From contig NZ_FUIC01000019.1 in the NCBI RefSeq assembly GCF_900163695.1, positions 1 through 34,180 of the forward strand: a stretch of 34,180 nucleotides of DNA, given 5' to 3'. Below, one piece after another: positions 3,102 to 32,475 of the stretch. The position numbers and the translations under genes are program-made. Numbering within the stretch: the first letter of the stretch is position 1; the number at the start of each line of letters is the position of its first letter. The notes beneath the pieces were generated by a model. It was not told the origin of the DNA. It ran no database searches and was given only the letters and a program-made list of their open reading frames with translations. The DNA comes from Gulosibacter sp. 10. Its GTDB lineage: Bacteria; Actinomycetota; Actinomycetes; Actinomycetales; Microbacteriaceae.

Positions 3102-3950
3102 GTGAGGATCAGAAGCATTAAGCCTGAGTTTTGGCGGTCGCCGGATGTGTCGGGGCTTGAGATCGAGGATCGGCTGCTGTTTATCGGCTTGTGGTCGTAT
3201 GTGGACGACAACGGGGTCGGGGTGGATGAGGCAGCGTTTATCGCCGCCGACTTGTTCGCTCATGACCTTTCAGTGAGTCCTCATGACACGCTCAATCGTG
3301 TTTCAGGAGGGCTCAATCGCTTGTTTTCGGCGGGGTTGATCGGCCGGTATGAGGTGGATGGGCGCGGGTTTTTGCATGTCACGAATTGGTCGCGTCATCA
3401 GAAGATCAACCGCCCTTCCCCTGGCCGTTATCCGTTGCCTGATCAGGGGATTCTCCGCCCCGCTCCTGATGCTCAAGTGCTGCTCAGTGATAGCTCAGTG
3501 AGTACTCACTTCCCGGAACAGGGGAACAGGGGAACAGGGGAACAGGGGAACAGGGGAACAGAGGAACAGTCTCTTCGTCGATCAGAGATCGCCGGACTCT
3601 TCGAGGAGGCGTGGAAGCACTGGCCGAAGAAGGTTGAGAAGAAACCCGCGCTCGAGAAGTTCGCCCGGCTCGCCAAGCAGCACGACCCCGAATGGCTCGC
3701 TGGCGAGATCTCGAAGTTCGGAGACGCCTACGCCGCGACCACGGACAAGCGATTCACCCCCGGGCTGCTCGTGTGGCTGAACCGCGAGCGGTGGACGGAT
3801 GAGCTCCCACAGTCGAGGTCGAGCACGTGGGTGGACCCGGAGCGATTAGCGATTCAGCAGTTGGAGGAGATGGAGCATGGAAATTTCGGAGGCGGCGAAG
3901 CTGGTGAAGTTCGCCCGTACGGCGATGCTGCAGCGATCGAAAGCTGCTGA
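3102..3950 (+). CDS. Replication initiator / DnaD-like helix-turn-helix protein
   Basis: 282 residues from GTG 3102, preceded by a strong Shine-Dalgarno (AGGAGGGAGG, 3087-3096). The N-terminus (RIRSIKPEFWRS, then RLLFIGLWSYVDDNG) is typical of phage replication-initiator proteins with a winged-helix domain (about residues 1-105). A low-complexity linker of E-Q-G-N-R-G-T-G repeats (about 138-157) is followed by a C-terminal domain with FEEAWKHWPKK and FTPGLLVWLNRERW, typical of helicase-loading partners. The linker is encoded by direct repeats that look like an origin, as in lambda O, where the origin lies inside the initiator gene. It overlaps the next gene by 74 nt. Confidence 0.8.
   Translation: MRIRSIKPEFWRSPDVSGLEIEDRLLFIGLWSYVDDNGVGVDEAAFIAADLFAHDLSVSPHDTLNRVSGGLNRLFSAGLIGRYEVDGRGFLHVTNWSRHQKINRPSPGRYPLPDQGILRPAPDAQVLLSDSSVSTHFPEQGNRGTGEQGNRGTEEQSLRRSEIAGLFEEAWKHWPKKVEKKPALEKFARLAKQHDPEWLAGEISKFGDAYAATTDKRFTPGLLVWLNRERWTDELPQSRSSTWVDPERLAIQQLEEMEHGNFGGGEAGEVRPYGDAAAIESC
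3259..3319 (+). repeat. Helically phased CTCA boxes, first cluster
   Basis: Inside the initiator gene, CTCATGAC occurs at 3259 and 3280, and CTCAATCG at 3291 and 3312. Box spacings are 21, 11 and 21 bp, whole turns of the helix, so all boxes face the same side. They may be an upstream set of initiator-binding sites related to the second cluster at 3471. Confidence 0.45.
3471..3514 (+). repeat. Four tandem 11-bp iteron-like repeats
   Basis: Four imperfect 11-mers run without a gap (GCTCAAGTGCT, GCTCAGTGATA, GCTCAGTGAGT, ACTCACTTCCC), placing CTCA at 3472, 3483, 3494 and 3505. The third and fourth form a perfect 14-bp palindrome AGTGAGTACTCACT at 3497-3510. An 11-bp unit does not keep reading frame, so the periodicity is a DNA-level signal. 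It is a candidate binding array for the initiator encoded by the same gene. Confidence 0.6.
3515..3570 (+). repeat. Seven tandem 8-bp repeats (GGAACAGG)
   Basis: Five perfect and two final imperfect copies (ending in GA and GT) follow directly on the 11-bp repeats. Three units equal 24 bp, so the protein shows an 8-residue EQGNRGTG repeat. Possible roles are origin iterons, an unwinding or spacer element, or an expandable slippage tract in a flexible linker. Confidence 0.8.
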
Positions 3951-8197: not shown

Positions 8198-8495
8198 CGA
8201 CAGCATCGAGCGCATCGAGCGCATCGAGCGCATTGCGGCGGCGGTTGCGGCGGTGACGCCGTGCGCGTGCTCGGCGCAGCGAGCGCGCGCGGAGGCCGCG
8301 GAGCAGCGGGTGGACGCGCTCAAGGACGATGCCGCCGAGCTCTTCGTGCGAGCCCGCAAGGCGGAAGCGAAGCTCGCCGCAATCCGGAAGTTCCTCCAAC
8401 CGCTCGCAGATTCGGTGCCTGATAGCGCCTACGAGTTTGGCCGGCGTCAGGTCACATACATGGTGCTCAAGATCATGGACGGAGACGACGCATGA
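8190..8495 (+). CDS. Coiled-coil hypothetical protein
   Basis: 101 residues from ATG 8190. Starts with an I-E-R tripeptide repeat (residues 6-14), followed by a CAC motif and a long Ala/Glu/Lys helix (about residues 29-70) with heptad character. The tail GRRQVTYMVLKIMDGDDA ends in acidic residues. It resembles small coiled-coil accessory proteins of actinophages, function unknown. The repeat is also a DNA repeat (8207-8233). Overlaps the next gene by 4 nt. Confidence 0.65.
   Translation: MSSDSIERIERIERIAAAVAAVTPCACSAQRARAEAAEQRVDALKDDAAELFVRARKAEAKLAAIRKFLQPLADSVPDSAYEFGRRQVTYMVLKIMDGDDA
8207..8233 (+). repeat. Three 9-bp direct repeats (CGAGCGCAT)
   Basis: Three exact copies in tandem encode part of the I-E-R repeat. 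Nearly the same unit, CGAGCGCAC, occurs three times (the last ending in G) in the gene at 9954. Confidence 0.75.
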
Positions 8496-8590
8496 GTGAC
8501 GCGACGGTAGTCACGATCCCCACGCTGTACGCCCGCACGCACGTGTGCGTGATCAGCGACTGCGACTTCATGGACGAGGAGGACACGTGA
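8492..8590 (+). CDS. Very small hypothetical protein (32 residues)
   Basis: ATG 8492 overlaps the preceding stop (ATGA) and its TGA overlaps the next GTG (GTGA), so it is coupled on both sides. The product is MSDATVVTIPTLYAR followed by a short C-x4-C segment and an acidic end (MDEEDT). It is too short for a family assignment; it may mainly link translation of the neighbours. Confidence 0.5.
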   Translation: MSDATVVTIPTLYARTHVCVISDCDFMDEEDT

Positions 8591-9351
8591 CCGAAATCGA
8601 CGTGAGGCAGCTAATCGGCGAAGCGGCTGACCTCGCAGCGCAGCTCGCGGGGCAGATCATCCCGTCCTCGCAGCCCTCCGACCTGCCCGCGCAAGGCAGC
8701 GACCCATCCGACGCCGCCAGAGTCACCGCCCTCCACGACCTCGACCGGCTCATGCGCATCCTCGTCGACGCCATCGACTACTGGGACCGCGCACAGTCCG
8801 GGTGGGAGTACGTGCAGCCCCGGGATGTGCAGGCCGCCGGCGTGATCCGTGGCGACAGGCTCCGCTACGGGAGGGTCGTGACCGACGACCCCCTACAGGC
8901 GGGACGCGACGCGGGACTGCTCGCAGGCATCCTTACCCGCACATGGGCGGACATTGCATCGTCGCCGCTCTACGCGCACTGGCAGGACGCCACCGAGGAT
9001 GACCTGAAATGGCTCGCGCGGAAGGTCCGCATGCTCGAGGTGCGGGAGGTCGCGCAACGCCCCCGGCACTGCCAGGTGTGCGGCGTCCGAGACGTGTGGG
9101 CAGACCTCACCCACAACTCGGGCGTGTGCGCCGGCTGTGGGGCGGTGATGCGGGCAGAGGTGTGGCTGAGCGTCAGGGAGGCAGCGAAACGCCTCGGCGT
9201 GAGTATCCGCACGGTGCAGTCCTGGGTCGCGGGCGGTGCAGTGGAGAGCCGCAAATCGGGGCGGACCTCGCAGGTCGAGTGGTCGGAGTGTCGGGAGCAT
9301 CAGGAGCTCGCGGAGGCACGCCGCAAGCTGAATCTCAAGGTCGGATCGTAG
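8587..9351 (+). CDS. Zinc-ribbon / helix-turn-helix DNA-binding protein
   Basis: 254 residues from GTG 8587; longer frames would overlap the coupled small gene. Residues about 1-150 are a helical domain of unknown function with DYWDRAQSGWEYV and LLAGILTRTW. A zinc ribbon follows (HCQVCGVRD, then CAGCG, about residues 160-182). The C-terminus (about 193-240) is a MerR/excisionase-like HTH: WLSVREAAKRLGVSIRTVQSW, then VAGGAVESRKSGRTSQV. It probably binds DNA as a regulator or accessory factor of the adjacent structured region. It is the last gene of the accessory operon. Confidence 0.75.
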   Translation: MTEIDVRQLIGEAADLAAQLAGQIIPSSQPSDLPAQGSDPSDAARVTALHDLDRLMRILVDAIDYWDRAQSGWEYVQPRDVQAAGVIRGDRLRYGRVVTDDPLQAGRDAGLLAGILTRTWADIASSPLYAHWQDATEDDLKWLARKVRMLEVREVAQRPRHCQVCGVRDVWADLTHNSGVCAGCGAVMRAEVWLSVREAAKRLGVSIRTVQSWVAGGAVESRKSGRTSQVEWSECREHQELAEARRKLNLKVGS

Positions 9352-9360
9352 ATCCCCGAA

Positions 9361-9382
9361 TTGCGCCTGACTGTGATAGGCT
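9361..9382 (+). promoter_or_regulatory. Weak candidate extended -10 promoter
   Basis: TGATAGGCT at 9374-9382 fits an extended -10 (TGn-TAnnnT) used in high-GC actinobacteria. TTGCGC at 9361 is only 10 nt upstream, too close for a normal -35, so this would be an extended -10 promoter without a -35. Initiation near 9389 would meet the hairpin at 9415. Confidence 0.25.
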
Positions 9383-9414
9383 TGCAGCCGTAGGCGATCT
9401 GCCTGTGTACGAGA

Positions 9415-9440
9415 CCCCCGGAGGTTGCACCTCTCGGGGG
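9415..9440 (+). terminator. Intrinsic terminator after the accessory operon
   Basis: CCCCCG/CGGGGG outer stem plus GAGGT/ACCTC inner stem, loop TGC and a single bulged T at 9434, followed by TTTCGTCGTTT. The hairpin is very stable although the T-run is broken. It ends the 5.75-9.35 kb operon. Confidence 0.7.
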
Positions 9441-9481
9441 TTTCGTCGTTTCCACTAGGTCTACGCGGGACATGCATCGCC

Positions 9482-9753
9482 CCATGAGGGTGCCCGCTTC
9501 TGGTCGTGCGACTCATGGCGAGCGCGCCCCACAGCTTGGCAATCCGCCGCGGGAGCTTAGCCTTTCGTACCGCGGCGGGTGCTGCACCGGGCATAGCGCT
9601 CCCGGGCCAAGAGAAACGCGCAGGCGCACCGGCTGCAACATGCCGGACGAGTGCCGATTGCCTGACGCCCCGGCCACAGGCCGCGTCAGAGGCCGCACAC
9701 TGGCGGCTACAACGTCACACGAGGCCCTGGCCGGGAGGCACGCGTATCCCGGC
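9482..9753 (+). ncRNA. Candidate structured RNA or packaging element (chain of stem-loops)
   Basis: No convincing gene is present between 9352 and 9867. Instead there are consecutive inverted repeats: 9482-9488/9512-9518 (7 bp), 9544-9552/9570-9578 (9 bp), 9587-9591/9601-9605 (5 bp), 9629-9633/9642-9646 (5 bp), 9662-9668/9683-9689 (7 bp with an inner GGCC/GGCC pair), 9692-9696/9703-9707 (5 bp) and 9730-9736/9747-9753 (7 bp), followed by an intrinsic terminator. Several loops (9553-9569, 9634-9641) are relatively A/T-rich while stems are G/C. It does not look like tmRNA, tRNA or RNase P RNA. Alternatives are a terminase binding site or chance pairing in GC-rich DNA. Confidence 0.3.
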
Positions 9754-9763
9754 GCTCATAGCT

Positions 9764-9796
9764 CCCCACCGTCCTCCGGGACTGGTGGGGCTTTTT
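9764..9796 (+). terminator. Strong intrinsic terminator
   Basis: CCCCACC (9764-9770) pairs with GGTGGGG (9784-9790), extended by GTCC/GGAC around loop TCCG with one bulged T, then C and five T. It has no ordinary gene immediately upstream, so it either ends a non-coding transcript or insulates the late region from the early one. Confidence 0.85.
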
Positions 9797-9799
9797 CTT

Positions 9800-9845
9800 C
9801 CCTGGCCCGCTGGCAGACCCACCGGGTGCACAGCCGAGGCCAGGG
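9800..9845 (+). other. Long nested stem-loop
   Basis: CCCTGGCC (9800-9807) pairs exactly with GGCCAGGG (9838-9845). Nested inside are GGC/GCC (9812-9814/9833-9835) and ACCC/GGGT (9817-9820/9824-9827). It lies between the terminator and the ribosome site of the 29-residue gene, so it could shape a leader RNA or be a protein-binding DNA site. Confidence 0.5.
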
Positions 9846-9867
9846 GTAGACACACAAGCCGGGAGGC

Positions 9868-9957
9868 ATGATGGACACGGTGACGCTGAAGGCAGACATC
9901 TCCACGTACGTGGACGCCATGAAGGGCGATGCGCAAAGTGACAGGGGCAACGAATGA
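9868..9957 (+). CDS. Mini-gene resembling a tape-measure N-terminus
   Basis: 29 residues from ATG 9868, with SD GGGAGG at 9861-9866 and an ATGA overlap with the next gene. The segment VTLKADISTYVDAMKGDA lines up with VVLRADVANYVRGMQEA at residues 8-24 of the tape measure at 21752, sharing V, L, A-D, Y-V and M in register. Tape measures of actinophages typically begin with such a segment. It is probably a fragment of a foreign tape-measure gene, or a small protein that mimics that segment. Too short to prove by eye. Confidence 0.5.
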   Translation: MMDTVTLKADISTYVDAMKGDAQSDRGNE

Positions 9958-10238
9958 TCCACGTCACCACCCGCGGCAGTGATGACTTCATCACCGCCGA
10001 CACATTCACGGTGCAGGCCACGACCGGGACGCTCCACGTCTACGACGGGTCCCGTCTCGCCGTGGTCTACGCAGCCGGTGCATGGTCGACCGCACGTCGA
10101 GTCACGGACGACGAAGCCGAGACGATCCGTGCCGAGCGCACCGAGCGCACCGAGCGCAGCCGATGGCTAGTCGACCGCCTCACGCAACCCAGGCCCGACG
10201 AGATCACCAGCGATGCCAGCACTACGACGATGCGCTGA
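9954..10238 (+). CDS. Hypothetical protein near the left end of the late region
   Basis: 94 residues from ATG 9954. The N-terminal part (MIHVTTRGSDDFITADTFTV, then GTLHVYDGSRLAVVYAAGAW) looks like a small beta-sheet domain seen in other actinophage hypothetical proteins. A T-E-R repeat follows (residues 60-69), encoded by 9-bp repeats. The C-terminus is unstructured. The function is unknown. It overlaps the next gene by 26 nt. Confidence 0.65.
   Translation: MIHVTTRGSDDFITADTFTVQATTGTLHVYDGSRLAVVYAAGAWSTARRVTDDEAETIRAERTERTERSRWLVDRLTQPRPDEITSDASTTTMR
10133..10159 (+). repeat. Three 9-bp direct repeats (CGAGCGCAC)
   Basis: Two exact copies plus one ending in G encode E-R-T repeats. The unit differs by a single base from the CGAGCGCAT triplet at 8207, and the two sets flank the stem-loop region at about equal distance. 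Confidence 0.75.
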
Positions 10239-10542
10239 GCCAGGCTGCCCCGAACTCACCGGCACCACCCGATGCCCCGAGCACACCCGGACCCAAGACC
10301 GTGCACGCGGACCCCGACAAGCCCGAGGCTACGACACCACCCACGACCGCCTCCGCCGACACTGGCAGCAACGCCTCGCCACAGGCGAACACCCAGCATG
10401 CCCCAAGTGCGGACACCACGTCACCGCCGCCCACGACTGGCACCTAGGCCACACAGACAGGCGCGACGACTGGACAGGACCAGAGCACGCGCACTGCAAC
10501 CTCTCCGCAGCAGGCACCAAAGCCCACAACGCTGCACACTGA
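10213..10542 (+). CDS. HNH endonuclease linked to the terminase
   Basis: 109 residues from ATG 10213. Two zinc clusters are visible: C7, C12, C21, H24, then C63-x2-C66. The HNH core reads HDWHLGHTDRRDDW (H77, H80, D82) and EHAHCNLSAAG (H92, H94, N96). In HK97-like phages an HNH protein encoded next to the terminase is needed for DNA cutting at packaging, and this gene lies directly upstream of the small subunit. The role is inferred from that precedent. Other actinophages have the same arrangement. Confidence 0.85.
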   Translation: MPALRRCAEPGCPELTGTTRCPEHTRTQDRARGPRQARGYDTTHDRLRRHWQQRLATGEHPACPKCGHHVTAAHDWHLGHTDRRDDWTGPEHAHCNLSAAGTKAHNAAH

Positions 10543-10711
10543 CCAACACCAACCATTCGAACAACATTCGAACACGCGCCTCGACCCCACCCGCAACAAG
10601 GGGTGGGGCCACCCATTCTCACCCAGCGGACCAGTACCGCCGGGGATGCGAAAAAAGCGCGTGGTGGGTTCAAAACGTTTCTGCTTTACAGGTGTCAAGG
10701 AGGTGGTTGGG
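10543..10711. promoter_or_regulatory. Late-region leader: phased TTCGAA boxes, hairpin and A-tract
   Basis: The 169-nt gap before the terminase holds CATTCGAACA twice, putting TTCGAA palindromes at 10556 and 10567 (11 bp apart), an 8-bp hairpin CCCCACCC/GGGTGGGG (10585-10592/10601-10608) without a T-run, and an A6 tract at 10651-10656 in a relatively A/T-rich stretch. It is a candidate cos/terminase site or late promoter-operator; I see no clear -35/-10 pair. Confidence 0.4.
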
Positions 10712-11239
10712 ATGGGTTCTGGTGGCGCTCGGGCGCGCTCTGGCCCTCCTGCGAATCCGTTCTCGGCCCGCTCTGAGGGCAGGGAGTACGTGGAGCTTCC
10801 GGCGAAGGGGTTCAAGGGTTACGTGCCGGTGTTCCCGCTGCCGAAGCTGGATGTGTACGTGACGGAACTCTCGGATGAGGGCAAGCCGTACCGTGCGCTC
10901 TCGACCGAGTTGACGGAGGAGACGCATCGTCGGGAGCTGGCGCTGTGGCGTCGGCTGTGGCGGTATCCGCAGGCGTCGTGCTGGTCGCGGGAGAAGTGGC
11001 GGCAGGACGCGGTAGCGCATTACGTTCGCGTGTCGGTTCGGGTCGAGGGGCCGGAGGCGAAGGCCGCGGATGTGACGGCGATGCTGCGGCTTCGTGACGA
11101 GATCGGGCTGACGCCGCAGGGCATGAGCCTGAACGGCTGGAAGGTCGTGGAGGACGAGACCGCGGTGAAGCGTGCGGCGAAGAAGTCGGAGTCCACGGCG
11201 CAGGAGCGGCGGCGAAGGTTCGATGTCGTGACTGGCTAG
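10712..11239 (+). CDS. terS: Terminase small subunit
   Basis: 175 residues from ATG 10712, chosen over ATG 10646 because AAGGAGG lies at 10697-10703 with good spacing. Small terminases form rings that recognise the packaging site and stimulate the large subunit. The sequence contains LRLRDEIGLTPQGMSLNGW (about residues 128-146), a motif typical of actinophage small terminases, and a basic C-terminal tail (RAAKKSESTAQERRRR). Position directly before the large terminase supports the call. Confidence 0.85.
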   Translation: MGSGGARARSGPPANPFSARSEGREYVELPAKGFKGYVPVFPLPKLDVYVTELSDEGKPYRALSTELTEETHRRELALWRRLWRYPQASCWSREKWRQDAVAHYVRVSVRVEGPEAKAADVTAMLRLRDEIGLTPQGMSLNGWKVVEDETAVKRAAKKSESTAQERRRRFDVVTG

Positions 11240-11248
11240 GAGGGTGCG

Positions 11249-12931
11249 ATGGCTGAGCTGCGGATCGATTTCCCGACGCTCGGTCATCTCCTCGACGCCT
11301 GGTATGCACAGCATCTGGTGATCCCGGATGGCTGGGATCGTGGGCAGCCGTTTGAGCAGTCGCGGTGGCAGTACTGGTGCACCGCGAGTTTCTACCGGGT
11401 GCGGGAGACTGCCGCGCTCGAGGGTGGCCGGCCGATTGGTGCGCAGGCGTTTACGTTCCGCAAGGGCATCATCGTGGGCCCGCAGAAGTCGGGCAAGGGT
11501 CCGTGGTCGGCTGGCGTGGTCGCCGGCGAGGCCGTGGGCCCGTCGCAGTTTGCTGGGTGGGCGAAGCGCGGTGATGTGTATGAGTGCTCGGAGAACGGCT
11601 GCCCGTGCGGGTGGGTGTACGAGTACGAGCCGGGCGAGCCGATGGGCCGCCGGCACCCGTCGCCGCTGATTCAGCTTGCGGCGCTCGCGGAGGATCAGGT
11701 AGCGAACGTGTACGGGCCGCTGACGGAGATGGTTGGCGCGCCGGTCTTGTCGCCGCTGCTGCAGGTCCGTGAGGGCTTCATCCGCGTGCTCGGCGGGTCT
11801 CTGAGCGAGAACCGGGACCGCATCGACGTGGTGACGGCGAAGGCCAGGACCAAGCTGGGCAACCCGATCTCGTTCGCGTTGCAGGACGAGTTTGGGACGT
11901 GGATGGCGAACCCGGGCGCGAAGCAGAACATGCTCGAGTTCGCGGACACGCAGGATCGTGGCGCGGCGGGCATGAACGGCCGCACACTCGCGACGACGAA
12001 CGCGTATGACCCGGCGGAGAATTCCGCGGCGCAGATCCAGATTGAGCAGAACGACCACGATGTGTTCGTGTACTGGGACAAGCCGCCGTCGAATCTTCGG
12101 TTTGATGTGGCGGATGAGCGGCGCGAGATCATCGAGTACGTGTACCGGGATTCGCCGTGGGTGTCGGTGGACACGATCCTTGCGCAGGCGGCGTCGACGG
12201 CGAAGCGTGACCCGGGTCAGGCGGAGCGGTTCTTCGGGAACCGTGACGTGCGGGGCAAGCACAAGTGGTTCACGGATGAATTGCTTTCCGCGTATCGCGG
12301 GAAGCGGTCGGAGATCGACGTGTTCCCCGGCGCCCGTGTGGGGCTGGGCATGGACGGGTCGAAGAACGACGACTGGACGGCGATCAGGCTCGAGACCCTG
12401 GACCAGCACCAGTTCACGCCCACCTACACGGTGGGGGGCGTGGAGCGACTGTGTGTGTGGCGGCCCGAGGAGTGGGGTGGGGAGATTCCCCGCCAGGAGG
12501 TTCGCGAGGCGGTTCGGCAGATTCACCGGCGCTTCGAGGTCGTCCGGGGCTATTACGACCCGTTCTGGTGGGAGTCCGAGATCGATGACTGGGCGGACAC
12601 GCACGGGCCCGAGCGGGTGGTGCGGTGGCCGACGAACTCGATCAAGAACATGCACGCTGGGCTCGAGCGGTTCCGGCATGATTCCACGGCGTCGGAGTCG
12701 CGGTTCACGCATGACGGGTGCGAGTGGATGGAACGGTGCGTGTCGCACGCGATCACTCGTGCGCGCAGCGGGGAAATGTACATCATCGGTAAGCCGGAGC
12801 CGCATTTGAAGATCGACGTGGCCATGTCTGGCGTGCTCGCGCACGAGGCAGTCATGGACGCGCTCGCGAAGGGGCTCCGGTCGAAACCGGAGAAACCCCG
12901 CATCTCGCATGCGGTGTTCGGGTTTAGTTAG
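11249..12931 (+). CDS. terL: Terminase large subunit
   Basis: 560 residues from ATG 11249 with SD AGGAGGG. It is the ATPase that drives DNA into the capsid and the nuclease that cuts the concatemer. Visible are a variant Walker A VGPQKSGKG (residues 76-84), Walker B FALQDEFG (D213, E214), a coupling motif ATTNAY near 248-253, and an RNase H-type nuclease domain beginning LGMDGSKNDDW (D369). Length and domain order are normal. A large leftward open frame opposite it is a GC-bias shadow. Confidence 0.96.
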   Translation: MAELRIDFPTLGHLLDAWYAQHLVIPDGWDRGQPFEQSRWQYWCTASFYRVRETAALEGGRPIGAQAFTFRKGIIVGPQKSGKGPWSAGVVAGEAVGPSQFAGWAKRGDVYECSENGCPCGWVYEYEPGEPMGRRHPSPLIQLAALAEDQVANVYGPLTEMVGAPVLSPLLQVREGFIRVLGGSLSENRDRIDVVTAKARTKLGNPISFALQDEFGTWMANPGAKQNMLEFADTQDRGAAGMNGRTLATTNAYDPAENSAAQIQIEQNDHDVFVYWDKPPSNLRFDVADERREIIEYVYRDSPWVSVDTILAQAASTAKRDPGQAERFFGNRDVRGKHKWFTDELLSAYRGKRSEIDVFPGARVGLGMDGSKNDDWTAIRLETLDQHQFTPTYTVGGVERLCVWRPEEWGGEIPRQEVREAVRQIHRRFEVVRGYYDPFWWESEIDDWADTHGPERVVRWPTNSIKNMHAGLERFRHDSTASESRFTHDGCEWMERCVSHAITRARSGEMYIIGKPEPHLKIDVAMSGVLAHEAVMDALAKGLRSKPEKPRISHAVFGFS

Positions 12932-29465: not shown

Positions 29466-31340
29466 ATGGACATTTCGGAGAGCGTCGCGCTATGCGAGGT
29501 GACCGGCAGCATCGTCCGGGCGGTGCTCGACTCCCGCGACGCCGGCGACCGGCCCGACGCCCGCGAGCTGCCCGACCTGAAAGCGACCCTGACCGCGCGG
29601 ATCCCGTACCTCATCGCGGGCGGGCAGCTCATCGTGCTGGACCCCATCGTACTGGTCACGAACCAGGCCGGGGAGATCATCAACCCGGCCTCGCTCGACG
29701 AACCGCCGCAGGTCATCGCGACGGACCAGCCGGGCCAGTCGGAGTTCCGCTACGCGGTGCAGATCACGTGGAGGGGGCAGACTCCGGAGCAGGCCGCCGC
29801 GCTGTCCTGGGACGCCGCCGCCCCTGCCGGTGGGGTGCTGGATCTGTCGCACCCGGTGGATCCTCCGGCGCCGGAGGAGGTGCCGGAGTGGGAGCGGGTG
29901 CTCGCGGAGGTCGAGGCCGTCCGCCAGGCGGTGCAGGCCCTGCTCGAGGACACTGAGCAGGCCCGTGATGGGGCGGTGGTGGAGCGGGAGGCCGCGGAGG
30001 CTGCCCGGGACGCCGCCGAGCAGTACCGGGACGAGGCCGGGGAGATCGTTGCGGGGGAGATCATTGATGATGCGGCGCCGTCTGCGGTGCGGGTGTATTC
30101 CTCGGAGCGGGTGACGGCGCTGCTCGCCGCGCTCGACGCCGCGAAAGCCCCGGTCGAGCACACGCACTCCGCCGGACAGATCACGTCGGGGATCATGCAG
30201 TCTGCACGGCTGCCGTCGTCGACGACCGCGGGCCGTGGCATCGTGGAGCTCGCCACGAACGATGAGGCGGTCACGGGCACGGACACGTCCCGCGCGACGA
30301 CCCCCGCCGGGGTCGCGGCCGCGCTGTCTGCGTTTGGGGATCGGCTGCCGGAGCCGCCGGGCGCGCTGGATGCCCGTCTCGCCGCGCCTCTCGCAGGCGG
30401 CCGCTCCGTGGTCGTGTTCGCGGGGTCGTCGACGACGTGGATGGATGTGTGGCCGGCGGTGCTCGCCCGGCAGGTCGCGGGCCGGTGGCGGCAGCCCGCC
30501 CGGGTGAAACTCACCGACAGCATCCCCACCGGCGACCAGCTGGTGTTCGTGAACGCGGGCGTGAACGGCACCAACGCGGGCACGTACATCACGGACACGA
30601 CCCGCCCGCAGATCAACGCCCTCAACCCAAGCGCCATCTTCCACATGGTGGGCAGCAACGACTGGAAGCTGGGGCGGACGCCGGCCTGGTATCGCACAAA
30701 CCTTACGAGCCAGATCGCGGGGTTGTCGTCGTCGCGGCCGCTGCTGCACGTGCTCGTGCATCAGCACGAGCGGGCCGACACGGACACCGGCTCCTGGGAC
30801 GACTACGGGCAGGTGCTGCGGGAGATCGCGGCGGACCGGTCGGACACGATCGTGGTGGATGTGGCGGACGCGATGCGCGCCGCCGGTGTCGGCCGCGGCC
30901 TCGGCAACGCCTACGGGTTGCTGGGGGCGGATGATATTCACCTCACCGACCTCGGTGGGGAGGTGCTCGGTGACCTCATCGCGGACCGCCTCGGTCTCGC
31001 GTCCGGTGGTGCCTCGAGCACGGACACCGGCTGGATCGACATCTCGAACCGGCTCATCTCGGGGTTTTCCGCGGGCACGATTCAGGCGCGGCGGGACGGG
31101 GACTGGGTGATGATCCGCGGCATCGGCGTCACCGGCAGCTTCGCGGCGTCGTCCACGACGGATTTCATCTCGGGTCTCGACTCGATCTTCCGGCCGTCGC
31201 TGCAGGCCTGGGGCACCGCCTGGGGCGGCACGGGCACCGACAAGACCGGTTCCGCGACCGCGCGCACGAACGGGACGGTGGGCGTGACCTTCGGCACGGC
31301 GATGTCGAGCATGCAGTTCACGATCGTCCACCGCATCTAA
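29466..31340 (+). CDS. Tail receptor-binding protein with SGNH/GDSL hydrolase domain
   Basis: 624 residues from ATG 29466 (SD GAGGAGG); TTG 29445 is a poorer choice. Layout: N-terminal beta domain (1-130), coiled coil (140-195), fiber-like region with EHTHSAGQITSG (231-242), then an SGNH hydrolase domain (about 312-512) and a C-terminal beta domain (515-624) like those at fiber tips. Catalytic blocks: FAGSSTT (S322; the usual GDS is GSS), VNAGVNG (G365), VGSND (G396, N398), and DDIH (D489, H492). SGNH enzymes are esterases/deacetylases acting on lipids or polysaccharides, so this may deacetylate or deacylate a surface glycan during adsorption. Confidence 0.85.
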   Translation: MDISESVALCEVTGSIVRAVLDSRDAGDRPDARELPDLKATLTARIPYLIAGGQLIVLDPIVLVTNQAGEIINPASLDEPPQVIATDQPGQSEFRYAVQITWRGQTPEQAAALSWDAAAPAGGVLDLSHPVDPPAPEEVPEWERVLAEVEAVRQAVQALLEDTEQARDGAVVEREAAEAARDAAEQYRDEAGEIVAGEIIDDAAPSAVRVYSSERVTALLAALDAAKAPVEHTHSAGQITSGIMQSARLPSSTTAGRGIVELATNDEAVTGTDTSRATTPAGVAAALSAFGDRLPEPPGALDARLAAPLAGGRSVVVFAGSSTTWMDVWPAVLARQVAGRWRQPARVKLTDSIPTGDQLVFVNAGVNGTNAGTYITDTTRPQINALNPSAIFHMVGSNDWKLGRTPAWYRTNLTSQIAGLSSSRPLLHVLVHQHERADTDTGSWDDYGQVLREIAADRSDTIVVDVADAMRAAGVGRGLGNAYGLLGADDIHLTDLGGEVLGDLIADRLGLASGGASSTDTGWIDISNRLISGFSAGTIQARRDGDWVMIRGIGVTGSFAASSTTDFISGLDSIFRPSLQAWGTAWGGTGTDKTGSATARTNGTVGVTFGTAMSSMQFTIVHRI

Positions 31341-31404: not shown

Positions 31405-32475
31405 ATGGTCAAGCAGAACATCGGGTACCCGAACGGGGACCCCCGCAACGCGACCGGCACCGCCCGATGGGGCGGGAAGTCGTGGAGCGTTCGAAAGGAG
31501 GCAGCGCCCTGGCTGGAAGCCCTCGCCCGGGCGTTCAAAGCCCGGTTCGGGTACGAACTCCCCGTGTTGGAGGCGCACCGCTCCCTCGCGGAACAGCGGC
31601 GCCTCTACGACGGGTGGGTCAACCGCCGGCCAGGGTTCAACCTTGCCGCGGTTCCGGGCACCTCGAACCACGGGTGGGGGCTGGCGGTCGACTTCGGGTC
31701 CCCGCTGAACCTCACCAGCAGCGCGGAGCACAAGTGGATGCTCGAAAACGCGCCGAAGTACGGCTGGTGGTGGGCTGGCGGCCAGTCCTGGTGGAGCGTT
31801 AAGGAGCCCTGGCATTTTGAGTTCGACGGACGCAACACGCGAGGGAAGATCCCTCCGAAGGCGACGTCGTCCACGATCGGTACCTACACGACCCGGAAGG
31901 GCGACACGCTCCGGAAGATCGCGGTGCGCTATCGCATGTCGGTGGCCGCGCTCGCCCGCCTCAACAGCCTCAAGACTGACGCGACGCTCACGGCAGGGCG
32001 GAAGCTCAAGGTCGAGACGAAGTGGACGCAGCCCTACGGCACCGGGAAGGCGGGGACGTACAAGGTCACGACGTGGCCGGACGGTATCTACTACCTCAAG
32101 AAGGGGGATACGCAGCGCTCGGTCGCGGTCGCGCACAAGATGAGCGTGGCGGCGCTGCGCCGCGCCAACGGCATGGACGAGGAGAAGGGCTTCATGCGCT
32201 GGCCCGCCGGTCTCGGCGTGCGGGTGAAGCTTTCTCATCTCCCGGTCGTGTACCGGTACCTCGACGGCCCGGACTCGGACCCGGTCGCGACGGCGCAGGT
32301 CCAGCACCGCCTCAAGACCGTCTACCCGTCCTATGCCGGTGATCTCGTGGTCGACGGCATCTACGGCCCCGCGACCGCTGCCGCGGTGCAGGAGTTCCAG
32401 CGGCGCACGCCCGGTCTCGGCGCCTCCGCGAAGGTCGACTCCACGACCTGGTCCGCGTTGTTCGGGGGTAGCTGA
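31405..32475 (+). CDS. Endolysin: M15 (VanY-type) peptidase with two LysM and a PG-binding domain
   Basis: 356 residues from ATG 31405. It degrades the host wall at lysis. Residues 1-145 form a D-Ala-D-Ala carboxypeptidase/L,D-peptidase domain of the M15 type: H89 in SNHGWGLAVD96 and H137 in EPWHFEF bind zinc. Two LysM repeats follow (about 160-203, YTTRKGDTLRKIA...; 229-275, YYLKKGDTQRSVA...), then a peptidoglycan-binding domain (296-352) with VVDGIYGPATAAAVQEFQ. No signal peptide is visible, so release should need a holin. TGATG couples it to the next gene. Confidence 0.93.
   Translation: MVKQNIGYPNGDPRNATGTARWGGKSWSVRKEAAPWLEALARAFKARFGYELPVLEAHRSLAEQRRLYDGWVNRRPGFNLAAVPGTSNHGWGLAVDFGSPLNLTSSAEHKWMLENAPKYGWWWAGGQSWWSVKEPWHFEFDGRNTRGKIPPKATSSTIGTYTTRKGDTLRKIAVRYRMSVAALARLNSLKTDATLTAGRKLKVETKWTQPYGTGKAGTYKVTTWPDGIYYLKKGDTQRSVAVAHKMSVAALRRANGMDEEKGFMRWPAGLGVRVKLSHLPVVYRYLDGPDSDPVATAQVQHRLKTVYPSYAGDLVVDGIYGPATAAAVQEFQRRTPGLGASAKVDSTTWSALFGGS

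What the first reader, a model, noticed from the sequence alone, without database searches (positions are those of the whole stretch)
9441..9867. Dense chain of stem-loops in a gene-poor interval: candidate structured RNA or packaging site
Nine non-overlapping inverted repeats (stems of 5-9 bp, some extended) occupy 9482-9845, ending in one textbook terminator at 9764-9796 and one more nested hairpin. Some loops are A/T-rich, which fits folding as RNA. The open frames over it cross the terminator and show no coding bias. Known large phage RNAs (tmRNA, RNase P, GOLLD-like) are not recognised by sequence motifs. The region lies between the early and late blocks, where the DNA end or terminase binding site could also be.
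Basis: partly seen in the sequence, partly recalled or inferred. Interest (0 to 1): 0.75.

Follow-up and report, generated by a model that had tools for sequence, protein, structure and literature searches.

The report
Phage terminator hairpin shared with nuclease leaders
The "chain of stem-loops" is mostly ordinary non-coding DNA that ends in one real transcription stop signal, but that stop signal belongs to a widespread RNA hairpin that elsewhere sits at the very start of messages for a mobile bacterial RNA-cutting enzyme.

Summary
The interval is non-coding. One element in it is clearly real: the hairpin at 9759-9797 (7-bp stem, bulged U, 4-bp stem, UCCG loop, U-tract). The rest of the "chain" is near chance (5 perfect stems; shuffles 4.3). 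The folding signal (z about -3.2) falls to -1.1 for 9441-9757, and 4 of 49 other contig windows fold as well. A large structured RNA is not supported. Nor is a DNA end: the likely cos is 0.83 kb downstream (positional argument). The hairpin is not in Rfam. Its exact 27-nt stem-loop occurs in 20 genome-collection loci; 19 show an NYN-nuclease motif just downstream. Where hairpin and NYN occur together, a -10-like element ends 12-13 nt before the stem in 32 of 37 loci, so it is a terminator placed at the promoter; 6 of 11 pairs covary. Not every NYN gene has it. Phage copies lack the NYN gene and mostly the promoter (2 of 13 have one), and in three phage groups relatives carry other hairpins at that site. 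Here it most likely ends early transcription; an RNA decoy against NYN nucleases is not excluded. A CRISPR spacer of the same bacterium matches 9725-9758.

The parts
9759..9797 (+). Terminator hairpin of the NYN-leader hairpin family: TAGCT flank, 7-bp stem, bulged U, 4-bp stem, UCCG tetraloop, U-tract
   Evidence: R1 covariance model 67.9 bits (the model includes the window's own sequence); MFE -21.8, z -4.1; exact 27-nt matches elsewhere
9764..9790 (+). The stem-loop proper (27 nt used as search pattern)
9407..9447 (+). Strong hairpin, probably the first terminator after the HTH gene; its T-tract is interrupted (by eye)
   Evidence: fold z -5.4; sequence
9448..9756 (.). Non-coding spacer, no structure above chance as a whole, no detectable homologs
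9725..9758 (-). Protospacer matched at 97% over 34 bases by a CRISPR spacer of the same bacterial genome
8545..9351 (+). Helix-turn-helix gene, last of the early block
   Evidence: HTH_17, E 4.2e-6
10213..10542 (+). HNH endonuclease gene preceding the terminase genes
   Evidence: phrog_144, E 8.7e-7
10628..10679 (+). Predicted cos region of the phage (inferred)
   Evidence: best placement in 9301-11300 of the joined ends of Gordonia phages Ewald and Nyceirae (Dogfish 10637-10678); score not above shuffles, order collinear
11249..12931 (+). Terminase large subunit, in the late block
   Evidence: phrog_19179, E 3.5e-139

Best explanation
9441-9867 is the non-coding spacer between the early block and the terminase/late block of an actinobacterial tailed phage. 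Its one clear RNA element is an intrinsic terminator at 9759-9797 that stops early transcription which has read through a first hairpin at 9407-9447. Shown: the hairpin, its covariation across homologs, and its family. Inferred: termination in vivo. The hairpin is one copy of a family, not in Rfam 15, that in bacteria and plasmids forms the first ~40 nt of the mRNA of an NYN-domain nuclease gene, that is, a terminator placed directly at the promoter (start site inferred from the -10 position). Phages carry it detached from that gene and mostly from that promoter, and use it like any other terminator.
For: Non-coding. Hairpin z -4.1 plus U-tract. Alignment of 17 copies, NYN leaders and phage copies together: 97.3% of cells paired, 6 of 11 pairs with changes on both sides, 0 of 500 shuffles reach any of the five measures. 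An NYN motif follows in 19 of 20 exact genome-collection loci; in 7 of 7 plasmid records with the hairpin an NYN gene lies next to it (coordinates; four opened). A -10-like nAnnnT ends 12-13 nt before the stem in 32 of 37 loci with both hairpin and NYN (34 control offset pairs: mean 3.2, max 11), but in 2 of 13 phage or viral-contig copies, the window not among them. In Hortus1 it follows tRNA-Tyr, in CN1A it is annotated as a terminator. In the three phage groups compared, relatives carry other hairpins at the same site (Krypton555 vs Whirlwind, Snenia, Lolly9; Hortus1 vs Pioneer3; Birdsong vs Getalong).
Against: No transcript data. The window copy keeps the NYN-type 5' flank CATAGCT and a -10-like TATCCC at the right distance, hinting at more than a bare terminator. 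Gordonia phage Squiddly has a new inner stem yet keeps the outer stem and the bulged U (my reading), as some NYN leaders do, so part of the motif may be under specific selection in phages too. Sub-stretches of the spacer fold mildly better than shuffles.
Confidence: 0.72

Rival explanations
1. Decoy: the phage hairpin RNA mimics the leader RNA of NYN nucleases and sequesters or inhibits such a nuclease in the host, as pseudo-ToxI of phage PhiTE does for ToxN.
For: Closely similar hairpins occur in 11 named phages (14 records), while the NYN protein of L104 gave no match in 50,697 phage records. The NYN gene is sporadic (9 of 148 class genomes) and on plasmids (11 of 72,556 records). It has an NYN-like fold, invariant acidic residues and a weak match to a PADLOC defence candidate, HEC-09, E 8e-5. 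Precedent: PMC3475682 (abstract and passages read).
Against: Relatives carry other hairpins at the same sites. The genome that holds this phage shows no NYN gene. No evidence that the NYN protein is toxic or binds the hairpin.
Confidence: 0.12
2. Large structured non-coding RNA (~300 nt, 9448-9797) made as a discrete transcript.
For: Flanked by two hairpins; z -3.2 for the + strand; z -2.65 for 9520-9760; non-coding.
Against: Stem count at chance; z -1.1 for 9441-9757, and 4 of 49 other contig windows fold as well; no Rfam match at threshold; no sigma-70-type promoter found in 8400-11000 (other promoter types are not covered); no homologs found.
Confidence: 0.1
3. Packaging initiation or DNA end (cos, terminase binding) within 9441-9867.
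For: Lies upstream of the terminase genes.
Against: In Ewald the annotated cohesive ends interrupt the HNH gene, and the Nyceirae record is opened at the same place in a gene of unstated function. The best alignment of the ends of Ewald, Nyceirae and Dogfish in 9301-11300 is at 10628-10679, between the HNH and terminase genes. The alignment scores do not exceed the best of 100 shuffles, so this rests on position.
Confidence: 0.04
4. RNA-based replication origin of an extrachromosomal prophage, as in parABS mycobacteriophages.
For: The phage is a separate contig; such prophages need a non-coding RNA region of a few hundred bases (PMC7157519, passages read).
Against: Those origins lie beside parABS; no ParA or ParB among the 38 of 167 window ORFs scanned with Pfam or PHROGs, and a replication initiation protein gene is present at 3102-3950.
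Confidence: 0.02

Closest known systems
Rho-independent (intrinsic) terminator
   Same: G+C-rich stem-loop followed by a U-tract, at the end of a transcription block
   Different: Stem sequence and bulged U are kept across distant actinobacteria and tied to one gene family, which is not expected of ordinary terminators
Type III toxin-antitoxin loci (ToxIN) and the pseudo-ToxI of phage PhiTE (PMC3475682, abstract and passages)
   Same: NYN loci have promoter, RNA element with terminator, then a nuclease gene; a phage carries a look-alike of the RNA
   Different: One hairpin that is itself the terminator, no antitoxin repeats; the nuclease is NYN-like, not ToxN-like; no toxicity or neutralisation shown
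Promoter-proximal transcription attenuators (general knowledge)
   Same: Terminator between promoter and coding start
   Different: The terminator starts about 5 nt after the inferred start site, so no upstream sensor or antiterminator domain fits; the signal is unknown

Membership tests
Intrinsic terminator | Stable G+C-rich hairpin | tested here: met
   -21.8 kcal/mol, z -4.1
Intrinsic terminator | U-tract directly after the stem | tested here: met
   GGTGGGG CTTTTTC
Intrinsic terminator | Terminates transcription in vivo | not testable with these tools
   needs 3'-end sequencing
NYN-leader hairpin family (defined here, model R1) | Sequence/structure match to the covariance model | tested here: met
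   67.9 bits, with the caveat that the window sequence is in the model
NYN-leader hairpin family (defined here, model R1) | NYN gene directly downstream | tested here: not met
   no NYN motif or match in the window's loci L093 and L172; none in the host genome
NYN-leader hairpin family (defined here, model R1) | -10 element ending 12-13 nt before the stem | tested here: not met
   TATCCC at gap 13, lacks the final T; no -35 seen by eye
Known Rfam RNA families (tmRNA, RNase P, GOLLD and others) | Covariance-model score above gathering threshold | tested here: not met
   0 matches in 34,180 bases; sub-threshold matches only
cos / terminase site | Collinear with the genome ends of related cos phages | tested here: not met
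   best placement of the ends is 10628-10679, positional only
Type III toxin-antitoxin | Tandem antitoxin RNA repeats | tested here: not met
   one match above 11 bits in the window; among the NYN loci read, two copies were seen only in L108, 132 nt apart, not counted systematically
Type III toxin-antitoxin | RNA neutralises the nuclease | not testable with these tools
   needs co-expression and binding assays
RNA-based prophage origin | Next to parABS | tested here: inconclusive
   none among the 38 of 167 ORFs scanned

The most novel reading that the evidence does not exclude
Promoter, leader hairpin and NYN nuclease form an undescribed, mobile, RNA-regulated nuclease system of actinobacteria: the hairpin RNA is terminator, regulator and possibly inhibitor of the nuclease. 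Actinophages, this one included, carry detached copies of the hairpin as RNA mimics that keep the nuclease in check.
Probability: 0.12. Interest if true: 0.82.

Novelty: new variant of a known kind. Interest (0 to 1): 0.4.

Why it matters
In the window itself this is a terminator. The family it belongs to is the useful part: a terminator hairpin set at the start site of a sporadic, often plasmid-borne nuclease gene across actinobacteria, with strong covariation. That suggests regulated, perhaps conflict-related expression of an uncharacterised NYN nuclease, and it raises a directly testable question: do phages that carry the hairpin interfere with it?

Tried and rejected
Rfam at gathering and relaxed thresholds: nothing credible. 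tRNA/tmRNA: none. Homologs of the spacer upstream of the hairpin: none in the 10 other genus genomes searched with 9441-9870. In 299 family genomes searched with 9445-9760, 20 besides the own genome had matches of 19-42 nt at E 4e-4 to 0.009, which I treat as chance. An exact 24-mer of the protospacer site is in no other viral contig. Sigma-70 promoter scan: 0 found. Ewald-type cos inside the interval: rejected on position only.

Results against a tight hairpin-NYN link. (a) Not every NYN gene has the hairpin. Of the 11 plasmid records with the NYN protein, 7 have it by BLAST and Dietzia and Rothia have divergent forms, read by eye; the two Mycolicibacterium plasmids (L145, L146) show none in the 160 nt before the gene. 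Of the 13 class-search loci (L131-L143), L139 shows a different hairpin and L137 a partial gene without one; L135 and L136 show it only farther upstream. (b) Not every strong hairpin has NYN. One search gave 48 matches in 40 of 296 genomes; 30 loci were fetched, and by profile search 19 of 30 have an NYN match, one of them (L196) with the gene on the other side of the hairpin. Eleven have none, the window among them; of these, L177, L178 and L188 keep only the first codons of the NYN gene and L179, L183 and L192 only its leader, by eye. In the family scan (8 of 398 genomes, reversed-pattern control 0) 4 of 8 have NYN; some of these are the same places as loci. (c) The -10 count was made on 38 loci that I picked because they show the hairpin; one did not pass the script's pattern and was dropped. 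The phage set of 13 leaves out L092 (viral contig with NYN) and near-duplicates (L095, L119, L121, L170).

Papers: the listings of searches (10 to 15 titles shown of up to 833 papers; one search found none) showed nothing that describes this leader; only open-licence PMC papers are held, and I judged from titles and abstract openings.

Full report
What was claimed.

Setting. The window is a whole contig (C20, 34,180 b) of a 3.65-Mb genome and is also a viral contig in IMG/VR. It holds recombination and replication genes on the left (RusA, RecE-like, Erf, replication initiator, SSB), an HTH gene at 8545-9351, an HNH gene at 10213-10542, then terminase, portal, protease, capsid, tail and lysis genes. 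The stretch 8400-16000 matches 73 phage records, all at 60-80% identity (Brevibacterium, Arthrobacter, Gordonia and Streptomyces phages among them); the listed matches lie over terminase, portal and head genes.

Noticed in passing
G000:C5 array (locus L002) versus window 9725-9758, 12377-12411, 30567-30601, 32101-32135: The same genome has a CRISPR array (37 spacers within L002, which may cut it) with a type I-U/I-G Cas7 gene about 6 kb away (L214:4052-5494). Four of the 37 spacers resemble this phage: one matches at 97% over 34 bases inside the finding, three match 28-30 of 35 (the last bases belong to the repeat); the best of five shuffles per spacer reach 21-25. A targeted phage living with its targeting array hints at escape, an anti-CRISPR or an inactive system (family PF09344 absent).
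   Followed up: partly
window 10646-11239: PHROGs calls this gene a minor tail protein (phrog_226), but it aligns with the terminase small subunit gene of Gordonia phage Ewald and precedes TerL; the PHROG name is probably wrong here.
   Followed up: partly
L108 (Actinomycetota MAG, JACPZY010000183.1): Two copies of the hairpin in tandem, 132 nt apart, before one NYN gene.
   Followed up: no
L177, L178, L188, L179, L183, L192: Loci where hairpin and leader, or the first NYN codons, persist but the gene is gone, as if deletions or exchanges start inside the NYN gene (read by eye).
   Followed up: partly
window 9868-9957: Possible short gene (29 codons) with a GGGAGG ribosome site after the terminator, overlapping the start of ORF 9954-10238; read by eye, not tested.
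   Followed up: no
L213:6071-7006 (- strand): Gene on the other side of the CRISPR array with PADLOC matches to mad3 (E 2.6e-32) and AriA (E 2e-13).
   Followed up: no
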